DNA of 64,000 bases from Pseudidiomarina indica (GTDB taxonomy: Bacteria > Pseudomonadota > Gammaproteobacteria > Enterobacterales > Alteromonadaceae): NCBI GenBank assembly GCA_029279945.1, contig JAJUHK010000011.1:1-64000 (forward strand), written 5' to 3'. The translations under genes and the position numbers were made by a program. The stretch's first letter is position 1. Every line of letters starts with the position of its first letter. Below are positions 14,578 through 21,074 of the stretch, in pieces. The notes under the pieces were generated by a model. It was not told the origin of the DNA. It did no database searches and was given only the letters and a program-made list of their open reading frames with translations.

Positions 14578-15072
14578 GTGTCAAACCGCGCAAGGTTTAG
14601 TTTAACTATTATTCTGGTGTTACTAATCACGCTGTATGCGCGCCCTCCGTCTGCGCATGAAGAACCCGCTGCAACGCTACCTGCAATCCCTCCGTTAAGT
14701 GCCATAAACTACAACAGCCGTGAAGGTTATTTCGTCCTTTATCTTGAGCATACTCCACAGCTGTCATTGATCGTTGACTACGCCACTGACCCTAGTTTTA
14801 CCACCATTTCAAATCAATACCCATGGTTTGCAGACTTCCAACAACTGACCTTGTCTGGCTTTACCGATGGAGAGCATTATTTTCGAGTGGCGCAGTACCC
14901 CGCGATAGGAGAACGTCAACGCCCCATTCAGGTAAGTAATACAGTAAAAGTTACGGTGCAACACTATGACACCTCGTTGGCATTAAGTTTATTGTTGTTT
15001 GGTGCTGCCATATTTGTGTGCTTAGTCGGCACGATTTTATATTTCCACACACGGTATCGAACCAATGACTGA
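14578..15072 (+). CDS. Periplasmic one-helix membrane protein in the symporter operon, function unknown
   Basis: 164 residues. I do not recognise a named family. A signal-type helix (about 7-22) is followed by a Pro/Ala-rich stretch, then an approximately 90-residue beta-rich domain resembling a fibronectin type III fold (YDTDPS-like strands, SGFTDGEHYFRV segment), then a C-terminal membrane helix (about 135-157) and a short basic tail. The bulk would therefore face the periplasm. The start is GTG with GGGAGG just upstream. Its end overlaps the symporter start by eight bases, so it is coupled to the transporter. It may present substrate to, stabilise or gate the symporter; this is inferred only from position. 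Confidence 0.7.
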   Translation: MSNRARFSLTIILVLLITLYARPPSAHEEPAATLPAIPPLSAINYNSREGYFVLYLEHTPQLSLIVDYATDPSFTTISNQYPWFADFQQLTLSGFTDGEHYFRVAQYPAIGERQRPIQVSNTVKVTVQHYDTSLALSLLLFGAAIFVCLVGTILYFHTRYRTND

Positions 15073-16495
15073 GTCAATGACGTACGCACTTCCCACGTCA
15101 TTGGGATTGATGATCATTTCAATTTTTGGCGTGATTTGGATTGTTTATGGTTGGTACTTAGGTCGTAACAACCGTACACACGATGATTTTGCCCTAGCGG
15201 GGCGGCAGGTAGGCTTAGGCTTGGCAAGTGCTACTGCTATGGCAACATGGGTCACTAGTAACACAACCTTAGTTGCTCCGCAGCTTGCATATCAACTGGG
15301 TATCTGGGGAATGGTCGGGTACTCTTTCGCCGCACTTGGTTTAATATTGTTTGCCCCATTAGCAGCTCGAATTAAGCTGTTGATGCCAAAGGGGCACACC
15401 TCAGGTGATTTCATTCGACTGAGGTTCGGTCGCCAAGCGTGGTGGCCATTTATTGTTATTTCCCTTATCTATGCGATTGGCTGGCTAGTGAGCTTAGGCA
15501 TGGCTGGTGGTATTTTGCTACAAGCCTTAACCGGGCTTGATTATCACACCGGCATGTCAATAATTTTGCTGGTTTGCGTGATGTATACGCTGTTTGGCGG
15601 CTTACGCGCGGTGATTGCGACGGATTTTATCCAGACGATCGTGATTATCGTTGGTGTGGTTGTGACAGCCTTGTTTTTGATCGATAACGTTTCTCTTGAG
15701 GTTATCCATAATGAGCTGCAGCACCATCATCCGCGCCTGTTGGATATGCTATTCCCAGCTGCATTAATGTTTCTTTTCAATAACATCTTTTTTGGCTTGG
15801 GAGAGATTTTTCACTCGAACGTGTGGTGGTCGCGCGCCTTAGCGTTCCGTAAGGACGTTGCTTTTAAAGCATTTATCTTGAGTGGCCTGCTATGGCTACC
15901 AATTCCCATAGTGACAGGTTTTATTGCATTGGCGGCACCATATCTAGGCATTTATCCGCCTAGCGCAGATATGATTGGACCAATGGTCACAGCGCATGTG
16001 TTAGGTAAATTCGGTGCTGTGTTGGTGTTAATCATCGTGTTTTCAGCCTTAGCATCAAGCTTAGATTCGTTGCTTGCGGCTACAGCAGATTTAATTACTC
16101 GGGATATTTATTGCCAGTTCATTGCGCCGCAGGCCAGTGATAAGCAATTGATCTGTGTTAACCGATTCTGTTTGGCTGGCCTGGGTGTATTTACTTGGTT
16201 GCTGTGCCTACCGCAAGTAACCACACTAGCGGCACTCTTGCATTTCACTGGTGCGTTTGTGGCCAGCACAATTTTCCCAATAGTGTTGGGGTTATACCAT
16301 CCTAATCTCAGTGGCCGTACCGCCGCACTAGCGATGACCTGTGGCTCCGTAATTGGCTTGCTGAGCTATTTTATCGTTGGTTTCTATGTGGCGGCACTAA
16401 CATCTTGCGCAGTGTCTATGGTGATTTGTGTCGTTGGCTTACGCACTTCAAATTTTTCGTTTCGTTGGCAACACATACGGGAGCATGACTCATGA
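15065..16495 (+). CDS. Sodium:solute symporter (SSS family)
   Basis: 476-residue inner-membrane transporter with about 13 hydrophobic helices. SSS hallmarks: the N-terminal DDFALAGRQVG segment, the GGLRAVIATDFIQ segment near residue 180, and the SSLDSLLAATADLITRD segment near residue 325, which matches the Na+-site helix of PutP-like proteins. The family imports amino acids, osmolytes, sugars or vitamins with Na+; the substrate cannot be read from sequence. It sits in an operon with a carbamoyltransferase and an amidotransferase, so the solute may be the product or precursor of those enzymes. It overlaps both neighbours (eight bases upstream, four bases downstream). Confidence 0.9.
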   Translation: MTESMTYALPTSLGLMIISIFGVIWIVYGWYLGRNNRTHDDFALAGRQVGLGLASATAMATWVTSNTTLVAPQLAYQLGIWGMVGYSFAALGLILFAPLAARIKLLMPKGHTSGDFIRLRFGRQAWWPFIVISLIYAIGWLVSLGMAGGILLQALTGLDYHTGMSIILLVCVMYTLFGGLRAVIATDFIQTIVIIVGVVVTALFLIDNVSLEVIHNELQHHHPRLLDMLFPAALMFLFNNIFFGLGEIFHSNVWWSRALAFRKDVAFKAFILSGLLWLPIPIVTGFIALAAPYLGIYPPSADMIGPMVTAHVLGKFGAVLVLIIVFSALASSLDSLLAATADLITRDIYCQFIAPQASDKQLICVNRFCLAGLGVFTWLLCLPQVTTLAALLHFTGAFVASTIFPIVLGLYHPNLSGRTAALAMTCGSVIGLLSYFIVGFYVAALTSCAVSMVICVVGLRTSNFSFRWQHIREHDS

Positions 16496-16611
16496 TAGGG
16501 CTAACGGCATTTTCAATTTTAATCTTGGCTTGTTTGCTGATCTCAGTGATAAGCCCAGTGCTCCTACTCATGTTGTGGGCGCGCGATATTATTTCTAATC
16601 AACTATGGTAA
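16492..16611 (+). CDS. 39-residue single-helix membrane protein, probable symporter accessory peptide
   Basis: A tiny frame whose ATG overlaps the symporter TGA (ATGA). It encodes 39 residues: a hydrophobic helix over about residues 3-30 (rich in L, I, V, S, A) and a short tail ending RDIISNQLW. The stop is six bases before the next gene. The tight overlaps on both sides and the amphiphilic C-terminus argue that it is real. Small one-helix subunits encoded after SSS transporters are known, so a structural role with the symporter is likely. No homology search was possible. Confidence 0.72.
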   Translation: MIGLTAFSILILACLLISVISPVLLLMLWARDIISNQLW

Positions 16612-16617
16612 TTAACA

Positions 16618-17682
16618 ATGACGATGCCTGACATTTCGTTTCAACGTAGTCGCCCGGATGTATATGGCGATGCGCATCCCAAAGCGTTGCTACGCGCAAT
16701 TCAAGAAGATGGCGATTATCTTATTCAATTGGCTAATCAGCATATTGTGTCCGGCGACCAATTTGATCAACAGACCATGAAACAGCTGTTTCGATTAGCT
16801 GCAAAAATTGAGAGTAATCCGAAACGATTTCATACCCCGTTGAGAAACAAGATCTTAATTAGCGCGTTTTATGAGCCGAGCACGCGTACTCGACTATCAT
16901 TCGAAAGCGCTTGGCATCGCTTGGGTGGCGACATTATGTCGATCACCGATCGATCGACGACTGGGATTGCTAAAGGGGAAGGTCTGGCCGACGTAGCAGA
17001 AATGTTTAATAACTACGGTGACTGCGTGGTATTACGTGATAATTGTAATTACTCACTCTATGAAATGATGGATTCCTTACGGATTCCAATTATCAATGCA
17101 GGTAATGGTACCGATGAGCATCCAACGCAAGCCCTAGCAGATCTGTATGCCATTTTTAAATGGCGATCTGATTTATTAAGTAATTCAGTATCTAACAAGA
17201 TCCGTGTAGGAGTTATTGGTGTACCCAATAAAATGCGCACGGTGCGAAGCTTCTTAAAATGTTTGTCGGTGTTTGCTCACGTGGTAGACGAGGTGGTTGT
17301 CGTTCATGACGAGTCGTCTGAACAAGAGTTGTTTGCCGAAGGTCAGCGCGAAGAACTGGAACAACGTGGACTGGTTATTTCAACCAGTCATCAACTCAAT
17401 GCGGTATTGCCAACATTGGATGTAGTTTATATCAATGCTATCTCGTGGGAAGGCGACAGCTTTCATACCTATGGTGGGCAATTTCATTTAACCGCAGCGT
17501 CACCCTTGAAGCCGGACGCCATTATTCTACATCCCTTGGCTCGTGGTGAAGAGCTATCAACCGATCTCGATCATACCCCGCATAACTGGTATTTCAGTCA
17601 AGCGCGTGGCGCTGTATTTATTCGAATGGCGTTACTGACCTGCATGGTTGAGCGGACTGAACATGTTATTGATGTGGTGTAA
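16618..17682 (+). CDS. Aspartate/ornithine carbamoyltransferase-family enzyme with altered acceptor site
   Basis: 354 residues, longer than catalytic ATCase chains (about 310) through an N-terminal extension of about 35. The carbamoyl-phosphate site looks complete: STRTR (about 88-92), the loop lysine in GIAKGEGLAD, the arginine in VLRDN, and HPTQ (about 168-171). MRTVRS (about 206) keeps the equivalent of ATCase Arg167. The segment that in E. coli reads TRVQ and binds aspartate reads NAIS here, so the equivalents of Arg229 and Gln231 are lost, and HPLPR is HPLAR. It should still transfer a carbamoyl group, but to an amine other than aspartate. It sits between a symporter/miniprotein and an amidotransferase, not beside pyrimidine genes. 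Confidence 0.88.
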   Translation: MTMPDISFQRSRPDVYGDAHPKALLRAIQEDGDYLIQLANQHIVSGDQFDQQTMKQLFRLAAKIESNPKRFHTPLRNKILISAFYEPSTRTRLSFESAWHRLGGDIMSITDRSTTGIAKGEGLADVAEMFNNYGDCVVLRDNCNYSLYEMMDSLRIPIINAGNGTDEHPTQALADLYAIFKWRSDLLSNSVSNKIRVGVIGVPNKMRTVRSFLKCLSVFAHVVDEVVVVHDESSEQELFAEGQREELEQRGLVISTSHQLNAVLPTLDVVYINAISWEGDSFHTYGGQFHLTAASPLKPDAIILHPLARGEELSTDLDHTPHNWYFSQARGAVFIRMALLTCMVERTEHVIDVV

Positions 17683-17697
17683 CAACAGGAGTTTTTA

Positions 17698-19713
17698 ATG
17701 TGTGGAATAGCAGGAATATTTAATCGTTGTGCGCATCAACAGCCACAGCCGCAACAATTAGTAAACATGGTTGCTATTATGGCTCATCGAGGGCCAGATG
17801 ATTTTGGTTATGAGGTGTTACCTGAGCATGGCATAGGATTTAGCCATGCGCGACTATCAATCATTGATCTCAATAACCAACGAGCCCGACAACCCTTTAA
17901 AAGTGATGACCAACAGTTAATGTTGGTGCACAACGGTGAATTTTATGATTTTCAACGTATTCGTGCAGATTTAACCGCACAAGGGACAGTATTCAGAAGT
18001 AAGTCAGATACTGAAATAGCGCTACATTTATATCAACGCTACGGCTTGGCGCAGATGTTACCGATGTTAAGAGGTGAGTTTGCATTTGCATTATATGACG
18101 CGGCCTTGGATACCTTATACTTGGTTCGTGATCGGTTTGGCGTAAAACCACTTTATTATGCGCAAACTGAATCAGGTCTAGTATTTGGTTCTGAATTAAA
18201 GACCTTGTTTGCCCATCCAGAAGTACCGCGGGAGTTTTCGAGCACTGGTTTATTTCATCAATTGATCCAAGTGATGGTGCCGGGGAGCACAGCATTTCAA
18301 GGTATTTATCAAGTCCCGCCAGGTCATGTGATTAAAGTAACGCGTGCTAAGGGCAAGTTGTCTATTAGTGAAGAGAAATATTGGGATTTAGAATTTCCAT
18401 TAGCCCAGTCATACCATACCGATCAAGTCACAGAGCAAGATTATATTGATGGAGTTCGGGAGCGGTTACTCGAAGCGGTGCAATTGCGCTTGACGGCAGA
18501 TGTACCGGTCGGATGCTATTTATCGGGTGGTATCGATTCATGTGCCATACTAGGGTTGGCGTCGGCGGTATCTCAGAAACCAATCAAAGCCTTTACTATT
18601 GGCTTTAATTCTAAATCTTATGATGAGACCGCCATCGCCACTGAAATGGCGGAGGCCACAGGTGCTGATCAGCAGGTGATGCGCTTAGCCGGTCCAGAGT
18701 TATACGATAACTTTGTTGCCACGCTGTGGCATACCGAACGAACTATTTATAATACCCTCGGGGTTGCGAAATACTTGATGAGTCAGCAAGTTCAGCAGTC
18801 CGGTTACAAGGTGGTATTAACAGGTGAAGGTTCTGATGAATTGTTTGCTGGCTATCCCTCCTTCCGGCAAGATATGTTTAAGCATGGACTGGCACACTTG
18901 CCGGATGCAGAGCGGGAGGCGTGGCAACAGCAACTAGCATCATCCAATGCACTGTTTAGAGGTGCCATGTTGGCGCTAAACGAATACCGCAGTTCAGCGT
19001 TGGATGATAAGGTTGGATTTACGCCAAGTTGCTTACAACCATGGTTGTCATGCAGTGAAATTGCATTACCGCTATTAGCGCCTCATCATCGTGCACAACT
19101 GGCCGACTATGATGCGGGTCGAGCTATCGCTGATAAGTTAGATGGAACAATGCTCAACCAGCGCCATCCACTTGATAAAGCACAATATGTATGGATTAAA
19201 ACAATGCTAGAAGGGCAAATCCTCACGTGGGGCGGTGACCGTGTTGATATGGCTCACTCTATGGAAGCTCGACCTGCATTTCTGGATCACCATTTAGCTG
19301 AGTATGCAGCTACTATTCCCCCGCATTTACGAATTAAGGATAATCGGGAGAAATATGTATTGCGCGAAGCGATGAAAGGACTATTACCTGACACGCTTTA
19401 TCGACGCGAAAAGTTCGCCTTTATGGCACCTCCGGCACACACAGATCCGCAAAAGTTGGCAGCTATACGGCAGTTGGCGGAGGTTTATTTAACAGAATCG
19501 GCGATAAATGCTGCCGGAGTGCTAAGTTATTCGGACGTGGAACAGTTGTTACAGCGGTATGAGTTGGGAACGACGTCAAATGAGGAAAAAGTACAGCTTG
19601 ATGCAATGGTAAATCACGTGCTGGGGGTGCAAATTTTGCACCAACACTTCGTTGCAACAGATGTGCCGAAGTTAGCCCAGCAACGTGCTATGGAGTTAGG
19701 CTGGATAGCTTAA
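17698..19713 (+). CDS. Asparagine-synthetase-type glutamine-dependent amidotransferase
   Basis: 671 residues. The N-terminal class II glutaminase domain (about 1-210) begins MCGIAG, with Cys2 as nucleophile, and has RLSIIDL and HNGEFYD. The ATP-pyrophosphatase domain (about 240-600) has SGGIDS (about 276), GEGSDELFAGY and a MEARPAFLDH segment. It would activate a carboxylate with ATP and amidate it with ammonia from glutamine. At 671 residues it exceeds E. coli AsnB (554), closer to AsnB-like enzymes that amidate other acids. AGGAG is six bases before the ATG. It is last in the operon after the carbamoyltransferase, so a dedicated substrate other than aspartate is plausible. True asparagine synthesis cannot be excluded. 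Confidence 0.85.
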   Translation: MCGIAGIFNRCAHQQPQPQQLVNMVAIMAHRGPDDFGYEVLPEHGIGFSHARLSIIDLNNQRARQPFKSDDQQLMLVHNGEFYDFQRIRADLTAQGTVFRSKSDTEIALHLYQRYGLAQMLPMLRGEFAFALYDAALDTLYLVRDRFGVKPLYYAQTESGLVFGSELKTLFAHPEVPREFSSTGLFHQLIQVMVPGSTAFQGIYQVPPGHVIKVTRAKGKLSISEEKYWDLEFPLAQSYHTDQVTEQDYIDGVRERLLEAVQLRLTADVPVGCYLSGGIDSCAILGLASAVSQKPIKAFTIGFNSKSYDETAIATEMAEATGADQQVMRLAGPELYDNFVATLWHTERTIYNTLGVAKYLMSQQVQQSGYKVVLTGEGSDELFAGYPSFRQDMFKHGLAHLPDAEREAWQQQLASSNALFRGAMLALNEYRSSALDDKVGFTPSCLQPWLSCSEIALPLLAPHHRAQLADYDAGRAIADKLDGTMLNQRHPLDKAQYVWIKTMLEGQILTWGGDRVDMAHSMEARPAFLDHHLAEYAATIPPHLRIKDNREKYVLREAMKGLLPDTLYRREKFAFMAPPAHTDPQKLAAIRQLAEVYLTESAINAAGVLSYSDVEQLLQRYELGTTSNEEKVQLDAMVNHVLGVQILHQHFVATDVPKLAQQRAMELGWIA

Positions 19714-21074
19714 CGCACTAGTTGGATGAGTGCTTTAGCAATATCAATGTTGTTGATATAGCCACGGAATTTATCAGCACCAGGACCATAGGCCATGACA
19801 GGAACATCAACCGCAGTATGCCCTGAGGTGGTCCAACCAGTTCGGGTGTGCTCGGTGATGATACTCGCAAGCACTTGGTGAATCGGATACAGACGTTCAC
19901 GACCTTGTGCCGAGTCATCGAACTGTGTACTGAGTAAGCGTTGCCATTGTTCATCAGTGACCGGTAGATTGAGTACTGGCGTTAGGTAGTCACGCCATTC
20001 CTCCCGTGGCAGTTGCGCTAACGTTGTTGCCATGGTTTCAATGGAACTGTTAATTCCCATGACCTTGTCTGTGTGCCAAGCATACTCACCACCTTGGCCA
20101 AGTGTTAAACCTCCGGTGGAATGGTCAGCGGTAATGACCAACAGGGTATTAGGATTCGTTGCGATATAGTCACGTACAACCTGTACTGCTGCGGCAAAGT
20201 CAGCCATCTCGTGAATGGCGCAGGCGATATCGTTGGCGTGGCCACACCAATCAATCATACTGCCTTCAATCATGAGCGCAAACGGTTTGCCGTTTTGCTG
20301 AGATTGCTTATCTAATAGGCGTAGCGCATGCTGCGTCATTTCGGCGAGACGCTCAGGGCGGTCATCAATGGCAAATGGCAGTGCTTTCGGAGCGAATAAA
20401 CCTAGGACAGGTAAATCGGTAACCGTTTCCAGTTCCTCTAATTGGGTGAGCACCTGCATACCTTGCTCAGTAAGTTGCGGCAGCCAGTTCACATCGTCGC
20501 GGTGGAAATAGCTATAGCCGCCGCCGAGTAATACATCATAACTCCAGCCACCGTTGGTGATTTGAGCGGCGTAGCTGTCGGCGATTTCGTTGTACATCCG
20601 CCGTGACGGATGGTGGGTGAAAAAGCTTGCTGGTGTTGCATGGTTTACTTGGACCGTAGCAACTGCTCCGGTGCCCCAACCATGTTCGCGAGCTAGCTCC
20701 ATTAATGTTTGTTGCGGATTCTTGTTGGCATCGAGAGCAATCGCACCATTATAACTTTTTACGCCAGTTGCAAGTGCGGTAGCGCCCGCGGCAGAATCAG
20801 TGACCCACGTATCGTCATCAGGGTAGGTCGTTGCTGCGCCCACGAGTAAATCATCAAACGGGGTAGGAGCTAATTCAGATTGACCTAATTCACTCATGGC
20901 ATAGCGGTAGGCCGAGATATACTCAAAGCCCATACCATCGCCAATCATAAAAATAATATTGGGTGCGGATGTGGTATGTGGCGCAACTGTGGTCGCTGAA
21001 GGGGCTGTCGCAGAACAGCTACTGAGAACCAAGGCAGATAGCGCAGTTAGTGAAAATAAAGTTAGCGATTTCAT
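19710..21074 (-). CDS. Alkaline phosphatase, lipoprotein
   Basis: 454-residue PhoA-superfamily phosphatase that releases phosphate from phosphomonoesters. A lipoprotein signal ends in LSSC (Cys about residue 20) and a Thr/Ala-rich linker follows, so it is probably anchored in the periplasm or outer membrane. Metal and catalytic motifs: MIGDGMG, TDSAAGATA (nucleophile Ser), the IEGSMIDWCGHAND segment, ITADHSTGG and TSGHTAVDVPV. A well-placed Pho box and -10 lie upstream, so induction by phosphate starvation through PhoB is likely. It ends four bases into the convergent amidotransferase gene. Confidence 0.92.
   Translation of the reverse strand: MKSLTLFSLTALSALVLSSCSATAPSATTVAPHTTSAPNIIFMIGDGMGFEYISAYRYAMSELGQSELAPTPFDDLLVGAATTYPDDDTWVTDSAAGATALATGVKSYNGAIALDANKNPQQTLMELAREHGWGTGAVATVQVNHATPASFFTHHPSRRMYNEIADSYAAQITNGGWSYDVLLGGGYSYFHRDDVNWLPQLTEQGMQVLTQLEELETVTDLPVLGLFAPKALPFAIDDRPERLAEMTQHALRLLDKQSQQNGKPFALMIEGSMIDWCGHANDIACAIHEMADFAAAVQVVRDYIATNPNTLLVITADHSTGGLTLGQGGEYAWHTDKVMGINSSIETMATTLAQLPREEWRDYLTPVLNLPVTDEQWQRLLSTQFDDSAQGRERLYPIHQVLASIITEHTRTGWTTSGHTAVDVPVMAYGPGADKFRGYINNIDIAKALIQLVR

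What the first reader, a model, noticed from the sequence alone, without database searches (positions are those of the whole stretch)
14578..19713. Five-gene operon that may make and import a carbamoylated, amidated amino-acid solute
Seen: five genes on one strand with overlaps or gaps of at most 15 bases, encoding an FN3-like one-helix membrane protein, an SSS symporter, a 39-residue membrane peptide, a carbamoyltransferase that has lost aspartate-site residues, and an AsnB-type amidotransferase. Known: AsnB-like enzymes amidate a C-terminus in the osmolyte N-acetylglutaminylglutamine amide, and N-alpha-carbamoyl-L-glutamine 1-amide is a known compatible solute of a halophilic Ectothiorhodospira whose genes, as far as I know, are undescribed. 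Inference: carbamoyl transfer to an amino acid (perhaps glutamine) followed by amidation of C1 would give such a compound, and the Na+ symporter could import or recover it. A novel osmolyte locus is the best reading.
Basis: partly seen in the sequence, partly recalled or inferred. Interest (0 to 1): 0.88.

Follow-up and report, generated by a model that had tools for sequence, protein, structure and literature searches.

The report
Candidate genes for carbamoylglutamine amide osmolyte
A five-gene operon of a marine-type bacterium probably makes and takes up a small uncharged salt protectant, and the same two enzyme genes lie in genomes that match the bacterium in which carbamoylglutamine amide was found, so the unknown origin of that compound becomes testable.

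Summary
The five genes are as described. The carbamoyltransferase (CT) is a third paralogue beside ArgF and PyrB; AsnA is present, so ASN is not needed for asparagine. In 117 of 119 CT-like sequences the carbamoyl-phosphate residues stay and PyrB's R229 and Q231 are lost; two distant relatives differ. CT and ASN orthologues occur in the same 23 of 369 sampled genomes of the class and are adjacent in 113 of 118 loci. New here: the cluster often carries an M20 carbamoylase-family hydrolase (73 of 118) and an isochorismatase-fold amidohydrolase (35 of 118), which would undo both steps. [quoted passage not shown] mobilis hold all four. Best reading: CT and ASN make that solute and the SSS carrier imports or recovers it. 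Searches of an open-licence library listed no paper on these genes.

The parts
14578..15072 (+). 164-aa membrane protein: N-terminal hydrophobic helix, FN3-like beta domain, one C-terminal helix; role unknown, perhaps accessory to the carrier or a sensor
   Evidence: same single-linkage cluster in 82 of 118 loci at a 35% identity cut
15065..16495 (+). SSS-family Na+/solute symporter, proposed to import or recover the product
   Evidence: PF00474 103.3 bits; present in 101 of 118 loci
16492..16611 (+). 39-aa single-helix membrane peptide, proposed small subunit of the symporter
   Evidence: overlaps the symporter stop by 4 bases; short hydrophobic ORF at the same place in 99 of 101 loci with SSS
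16618..17682 (+). CT: aspartate-carbamoyltransferase-fold enzyme with changed amino-acid site; proposed N-alpha-carbamoylation of an L-amino acid, most likely glutamine
17698..19713 (+). ASN: AsnB-type glutamine-dependent amidotransferase; proposed amidation of C1 of the carbamoyl amino acid
   Evidence: orthologues in the same 23 genomes as CT

Best explanation
[quoted passage not shown] CT transfers the carbamoyl group of carbamoyl phosphate to the alpha-amino group of L-glutamine; ASN then activates C1 with ATP and amidates it with ammonia from a second glutamine. The SSS carrier, with its 39-aa peptide and perhaps the FN3 membrane protein, imports or recaptures the solute. In other lineages the cluster also carries an isochorismatase-fold amidohydrolase and an M20 carbamoylase-family hydrolase, which would remove the amide and then the carbamoyl group, and in part of them a MarR-type regulator; the window's lineage shows only the making and importing half. 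Shown here: gene content, orthology, co-occurrence, residue changes, neighbours, presence in the genus of Ectothiorhodospira BSL-9. Inferred: substrate, order of steps, osmolyte role, roles of the hydrolases and membrane proteins.
For: CT is a third OTCase-fold protein beside ArgF and PyrB, both told by eye from sequence and neighbours. AsnA is present, and ASN is the only Asn_synthase protein of the genome. Residues: carbamoyl-phosphate site kept in 116-117 of 117, R229 and Q231 lost in 117 of 117, N273, I275 and W277 invariant; two 37-40% relatives (L191, L205) set apart. CT and ASN orthologues in the same 23 of 369 genomes; adjacent in 113 of 118 loci. M20 hydrolase (4 of 73 scanned): TIGR01879 hydantoinase/carbamoylase 349.7-401.2 bits, cut-off 204; best solved relative of one of them an N-carbamoyl-L-amino acid hydrolase, E 1.3e-71. 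Isochorismatase-fold partner (4 of 35 scanned) nearest to biuret, N-carbamoylsarcosine and other cysteine hydrolases. In the genus of BSL-9, 10 of 10 genomes hold M20-ISO-CT-ASN; the genus is fixed by G432 = 3,550,080 bp = Ectothiorhodospira sp. BSL-9. G378 and G429 match E. marismortui and E. mobilis in size, contig number, GC and mutual identity (93.6% over the locus; published ANI 92.6); each has three OTCase-fold proteins, CT being the weakest scorer. CGA is reported from E. marismortui (PMC1224877; PMC3857566). Two genomes that fit Ectothiorhodosinus mongolicus (G164) and E. magna (G427), species reported to lack betaine and ectoine synthesis genes, hold the cluster. The window's genome lacks ectoine synthase.
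Against: No enzyme, metabolite or expression data. CGA is a minor solute where found, a 2013 review knows it from one organism only, while the genes are far wider spread. For Thioalkalivibrio glycine betaine is the main solute reported; the main texts of a salt and a cold study on it contain no mention of carbamoyl or asparagine synthase genes. A Raman study saw no CGA signal in E. marismortui, having no reference spectrum. The top NCBIfam model of the M20 protein is named allantoate amidohydrolase (512.3-537.4 bits, cut-off 399) and the N-carbamyl-L-glutamate amidohydrolase model is missed (360.6-391.2, cut-off 520); no curated model over cut-off names the isochorismatase-fold protein. Two near-complete genomes of the window's genus lack CT (G013, G025). 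The MarR link to EctR/CosR could not be tested.
Confidence: 0.62

Rival explanations
1. Same chemistry, different amino acid: CT and ASN make an N-carbamoyl amide of asparagine, alanine or another neutral L-amino acid, or different products in different lineages.
For: Nothing in the sequences names glutamine; positions 274 and 276 vary (A/S/T and A/S/V/T) across 117 CT.
Against: The one metabolite of this type found in the papers searched comes from a species whose matching genome carries the genes, and it is the glutamine compound.
Confidence: 0.18
2. The cluster handles an N-carbamoyl amino acid amide as nitrogen store or scavenged nutrient, not as osmolyte: SSS imports, the hydrolases break it down, CT and ASN lay it down when nitrogen is plentiful.
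For: Hydrolases are linked in 73 (M20) and 35 (ISO) of 118 loci; CGA holds four nitrogens.
Against: The window's genome has no M20 homologue at E 1e-10 and 0 of 36 Idiomarinaceae loci carry one within the stretch held, so there the product is made but not obviously broken down (the isochorismatase-fold protein was not sought in the whole genome); CGA was described as a compatible solute.
Confidence: 0.1
3. The product is not a simple amide: ASN closes a ring or joins the carbamoyl amino acid to another molecule, as some AsnB relatives do, giving an unknown metabolite.
For: AsnB-family models include lactam and macrolactam formers; the ASN family has a conserved stretch of its own around residues 420-510.
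Against: The glutaminase start MCG and other conserved glutaminase residues are kept, which ring-closers often do not need (recalled); the linked hydrolase families fit an amide and a carbamoyl group.
Confidence: 0.07
4. Ordinary aspartate and asparagine metabolism: CT is a spare PyrB and ASN the asparagine synthetase.
For: Fold and family names; ASN passes the general asparagine synthase model TIGR01536.
Against: PyrB, ArgF and AsnA exist elsewhere in the genome; CT misses the PyrB equivalog cut-off (198.2 against 236.95), lacks R229 and Q231 and forms its own clade.
Confidence: 0.03

Closest known systems
[quoted passage not shown] passages seen)
   Same: Product predicted from CT plus ASN; a genome matching the producer carries the gene pair in an operon with two hydrolases of fitting families
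   Different: The known work is chemical; no paper listed in the searches named describes its genes; the window's organism has not been tested for it
N-acetylglutaminylglutamine amide (NAGGN) pathway
   Same: Uncharged glutamine-based osmolyte with an AsnB-type enzyme amidating the end carboxylate (pathway recalled)
   Different: ASN misses the NAGGN amidotransferase model (310.8 against 570.1 bits); here a carbamoyltransferase would cap the amine
Aspartate carbamoyltransferase (PyrB)
   Same: Fold and carbamoyl-phosphate site
   Different: R229 and Q231 replaced by small residues in 117 of 117; invariant N273, I275, W277
Ectoine clusters with EctR/CosR regulators (PMC7876524, passages seen)
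   Same: Compatible-solute genes with a MarR-type regulator beside them in part of the lineages
   Different: Different chemistry; kinship of the regulators was tested and gave no answer

Membership tests
Aspartate carbamoyltransferase (PyrB) | Carbamoyl-phosphate site: STRT, K84, R105, H134, Q137 (labels recalled, E. coli numbering) | tested here: met
   116-117 of 117 CT sequences; not in the distant L191 and L205
Aspartate carbamoyltransferase (PyrB) | Aspartate site R229 and Q231 | tested here: not met
   0 of 117 CT; 11 of 13 PyrB keep both
Aspartate carbamoyltransferase (PyrB) | NCBIfam equivalog score | tested here: not met
   TIGR00670 198.2 bits, cut-off 236.95; NF002032 192.2, cut-off 263
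Ornithine, acetylornithine or putrescine carbamoyltransferase | NCBIfam score | tested here: not met
   TIGR00658 90.7 (280.85), NF003384 35.7 (288), TIGR04384 60.9 (500)
Asparagine synthase, glutamine-hydrolysing (TIGR01536) | Model score over cut-off | tested here: met
   449.3 bits, cut-off 267.1
Asparagine synthase, glutamine-hydrolysing (TIGR01536) | Makes asparagine from aspartate | not testable with these tools
   indirect: AsnA also present in the genome
NAGGN amidotransferase (TIGR03104) | Model score over cut-off | tested here: not met
   310.8 bits, cut-off 570.1
Sodium/solute symporter family | Pfam SSF PF00474 score over cut-off | tested here: met
   103.3 bits, cut-off 22.8
Sodium/solute symporter family | NCBIfam superfamily TIGR00813 and the PutP and PanF equivalogs | tested here: not met
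   147.5 (184), 86.8 (515.5), 81.9 (328.05): no solute can be named
N-carbamoyl-amino-acid hydrolase (linked M20 protein, not in the window) | Hydantoinase/carbamoylase model TIGR01879 | tested here: met
   349.7-401.2 bits, cut-off 204, in 4 of 4 scanned including the E. marismortui match
N-carbamoyl-amino-acid hydrolase (linked M20 protein, not in the window) | Substrate-named equivalog (ErtE, N-carbamyl-L-glutamate) | tested here: not met
   360.6-391.2 bits, cut-off 520
CGA biosynthesis locus | Present in the known producer | tested here: met
   G378, matched to E. marismortui by genome statistics, holds MarR-M20-ISO-CT-ASN; the species name is inferred
CGA biosynthesis locus | Enzymes convert glutamine and carbamoyl phosphate to CGA | not testable with these tools
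   needs enzyme assays
Compatible-solute locus | Induced by salt | not tested
   no expression data on these genes seen; linked MarR regulators only suggest regulation

The most novel reading that the evidence does not exclude
CT is a previously unrecognised family of N-alpha-carbamoyltransferases acting on glutamine, and CT plus ASN is the missing pathway of carbamoylglutamine amide, a solute known from one phototroph but in fact coded in many marine, soda-lake and halophilic bacteria of several classes, with a self-contained cycle of synthesis, uptake and breakdown.
Probability: 0.58. Interest if true: 0.88.

Novelty: new variant of a known kind. Interest (0 to 1): 0.82.

Why it matters
A compatible solute described in 1991 and said in a 2013 review to be known from one organism only would gain its genes, and its range would widen to Idiomarinaceae, Kangiella, Alteromonas, Pseudoalteromonas, Nitrosomonas halophila, Kordiimonas, Thioalkalivibrio-type bacteria and a Cyanobium. 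It would add a carbamoyl cap made by a PyrB relative to the ways in which cells neutralise amino acids for osmotic balance, and would correct annotations of these enzymes as aspartate carbamoyltransferase and asparagine synthase. The question becomes directly testable with two enzymes.

Tried and rejected
Spare PyrB and asparagine synthase: rejected. NAGGN pathway: ASN misses its model. Glutathione-amide synthesis by ASN: considered because PMC8877833 (passages seen) predicts glutathione amide in most Ectothiorhodospiraceae; disfavoured because that paper found no glutathione reductase in E. mobilis and E. marismortui, whose matching genomes hold ASN, and because ASN tracks CT. EctR/CosR kinship of the linked MarR: eight ectoine loci were fetched and no MarR relative was found in them, so no answer. 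Which carboxylate of the substrate R167 and R229 bind in ATCase: terms sought in two papers did not give it, so the argument that the kept R167 reads the alpha-carboxylate is recalled only. The promoter scan found fewer sites than shuffled sequence and the terminator scan about as many. A first clustering of neighbours counted M20 in 55 loci; the later tblastn table counts 73 of 118 and is used. A first residue count admitted rows by a motif of the carbamoyl-phosphate site, which is partly circular; a recount without motif took some rows on the wrong strand; the count used picks the strand by alignment to the window's CT and has no motif filter; it agrees. A literature search for the ErtE enzyme found nothing of use.
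Full report
What is there. Five + strand genes at 14578-19713, with spacings of -8, -4, +6 and +15 bases: an FN3-like one-helix membrane protein (model pLDDT 91.1; FN3 modules among the best structural hits, none at E 1e-3 or below), an SSF symporter, a 39-aa membrane peptide, a carbamoyltransferase (CT) and an AsnB-type amidotransferase (ASN). The genome is 2.1 Mb in 28 contigs, and CT is closest to that of Pseudidiomarina indica, 89%, so a Pseudidiomarina-like host is inferred.

Not housekeeping. The genome has three proteins with the OTCase domain: one I read by eye as ArgF (genes like argG and argB beside it), one as PyrB (a hemL-like gene beside it), and CT. It has AsnA, and ASN is its only Asn_synthase-family protein. 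It has no ectoine synthase and no homologue of the M20 hydrolase at E 1e-10. The isochorismatase-fold protein was not sought in the whole genome.

Residues. Labels of E. coli PyrB residues are recalled; their columns come from the alignment. Of 119 sequences (the window and one per locus for 118 loci) two, L191 and L205, are distant relatives (37 and 36%) and were set apart. In the other 117, STRT is kept in 116 (one gap, the broken BSL-9 gene), K84, R105, H134, Q137, R167 and R269 in 117; R229 is A in 99, S in 17 and T in 1, Q231 is A in 78, S in 37, V in 1 and T in 1; N273, I275 and W277 are invariant. Of 13 PyrB, 11 keep R229 and Q231. In a tree of 63 rows CT forms one clade apart from PyrB (100/99), with long-branch warnings.

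Spread. Among 59 relatives, 20 of 25 same-genus genomes and one genome of another genus carry CT at 69% identity or more; of the five same-genus genomes without it G013 and G025 are near-complete. In 369 genomes of the class 24 pass E 1e-55 for CT and 24 pass E 1e-120 for ASN. Leaving out one 39% outlier (G329, CT) and one 38% outlier (G195, ASN), the two sets of 23, the window's genome among them, are the same. A scan of named genomes found 538 relatives of CT, ordinary PyrB possibly among them, of which the best 80 are held; all 80 have SSS-CT-ASN in order. They are a best-match list, not a random sample; besides Idiomarinaceae they include Kangiella, Alteromonas, Pseudoalteromonas, Nitrosomonas halophila, Kordiimonas and a Cyanobium.

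Neighbours. ASN follows CT within 700 bases on the same strand in 113 of 118; SSS is in the stretch in 101; the M20 hydrolase in 73; the isochorismatase-fold protein (ISO) in 35; a MarR-type regulator within 5.2 kb in 31. By group: Idiomarinaceae 36 (M20 0, ISO 0), other named 44 (M20 39, ISO 1), genus of BSL-9 10 (M20 10, ISO 10, MarR 9, SSS 0), other genera of that family 8 (SSS 5, ASN 6, M20 6, ISO 7), other genomes 20 (SSS 16, ASN 17, M20 18, ISO 17). Loci without ASN beside CT: L183 (its genome G468 has an ASN orthologue elsewhere, 64%), L184 and L195 (short contigs), L191 and L205 (the distant CT). The M20 protein was scanned in 4 of 73 loci, one of them the E. marismortui match: TIGR01879 hydantoinase/carbamoylase 349.7-401.2 bits (cut-off 204); the highest model, NF006771 (512.3-537.4, cut-off 399), is a subfamily named allantoate amidohydrolase; the allantoate deiminase equivalog AllC (265.2-290.3, cut-off 597.75) and the N-carbamyl-L-glutamate hydrolase ErtE (360.6-391.2, cut-off 520) are missed. 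One was compared with solved structures: best an N-carbamoyl-L-amino acid hydrolase, E 1.3e-71. ISO was scanned in 4 of 35 loci: Pfam isochorismatase in the two tried, no NCBIfam model over cut-off, biuret amidohydrolase the nearest (61.4-87.3, cut-off 370); among solved proteins cysteine hydrolases and N-carbamoylsarcosine amidohydrolase. Two enzymes that would add a carbamoyl group and an amide thus often travel with two of families that remove such groups.

The known producer. In the order that holds G164, 41 of 47 genomes carry CT, and 38 of 38 that are at least 90% complete and at most 5% contaminated. One genus in it (10 genomes) holds G432, a single contig of 3,550,080 bases, the exact length given for Ectothiorhodospira sp. 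BSL-9 in Table 1 of PMC8877833 (passages seen). G378 (2.6 Mb, about 40 contigs) and G429 (2.8 Mb, about 110 contigs) have the high GC (68.6% at the locus) of E. marismortui DSM 4180 (2,624,954 bases, 35 contigs, 68.2%) and E. mobilis DSM 237 (2,796,053, 119 contigs, 68.3%), and are 93.6% alike over the locus against a published ANI of 92.6; over the loci pooled their GC is 66.9 and 67.5%. G164 (1,995,095 bases, GC 55.4%) fits Ectothiorhodosinus mongolicus (1,990,961, 55.6%) and G427 (2.7 Mb, about 60 contigs, GC 62.2%) fits E. magna (2,721,342, 58 contigs, 60.9%); PMC7824335 (passages seen) reports that these two lack betaine and ectoine synthesis genes and, for the first, names carbamoylglutamine amide among possible solutes. 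All these names except BSL-9 are inference. G438 fits Thioalkalivibrio K90mix: 2,744,800 plus the 240,256-base plasmid gives the published 2,985,056. All 10 genomes of the genus have M20-ISO-CT-ASN in order on one strand; in BSL-9 CT lies in two frames. Five genomes searched (G378, G429, G432, G438, G164) each have exactly three OTCase-domain proteins. [quoted passage not shown] marismortui, the latter as a minor solute found in one organism only; PMC7824335 speaks of it more loosely, as found in purple sulfur bacteria.

Mechanism. Likely: CT carbamoylates L-glutamine at N-alpha, ASN amidates C1, SSS with the small peptide imports or recaptures the product. That CT acts first is inferred from the kept R167 (role recalled). 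The osmolyte role is inferred from the published role in E. marismortui, from carriers that seem to lack the usual solutes, and from MarR regulators beside part of the clusters, the family of EctR and CosR (PMC7876524, passages seen); their kinship could not be tested.

Against. No metabolite, activity or expression data. Thioalkalivibrio is reported to use mainly glycine betaine (PMC3368412, PMC9062515, passages seen), and term counts over the main texts of PMC9062515 and PMC8092127 give no mention of carbamoyl or asparagine synthase genes. Raman spectra of E. marismortui extracts showed no signal assigned to the compound, which was not in the reference library. Nothing in the sequences singles out glutamine.

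Literature. Searches (listings seen) showed no paper that describes genes for this compound. The library holds only open-licence PubMed Central papers, so a report elsewhere is possible. Of the papers opened, only PMC5064118 was read whole; the rest were seen as passages.

Noticed in passing
L182 (G432, Ectothiorhodospira sp. BSL-9): CT matches in two frames, so the gene is broken or the assembly holds an indel; if real, a natural strain to compare with producers.
   Followed up: partly
L191 (G304, second copy) and L205 (G329): Distant relatives of CT (36-40% identity) without ASN beside them and with other residues at the carbamoyl-phosphate site: a further subfamily of unknown substrate.
   Followed up: partly
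G195:C3:66297-68204: ASN-like protein of 38% identity in a genome without a CT match at E 1e-55.
   Followed up: no
27 of the 36 Idiomarinaceae loci, about 2.5-6 kb downstream of ASN: A MarR gene related to those beside the cluster elsewhere lies some kb downstream; none is listed for the nearest relative L053, and by eye none is among the window ORFs of 110 aa or more at 22.3-32 kb.
   Followed up: partly
window 16492-16611: 39-aa single-helix peptide ending in LW; a short hydrophobic ORF sits at the same place in 99 of 101 loci with the symporter (the 17 printed end in W): a likely small subunit of an SSS carrier.
   Followed up: partly
window 19710-21074: Alkaline phosphatase gene converges on ASN with ends overlapping by 4 bases; the same gene is found at this place in 15 of 36 Idiomarinaceae loci.
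   Followed up: no
G468 (locus L183, GC 55.6% over the loci held, 3.2 Mb): CT and ASN orthologues lie far apart in this genome, the one clear exception to linkage; size and GC would fit Thiorhodospira sibirica (3,188,869 bases, 56.7%), not checked further.
   Followed up: partly
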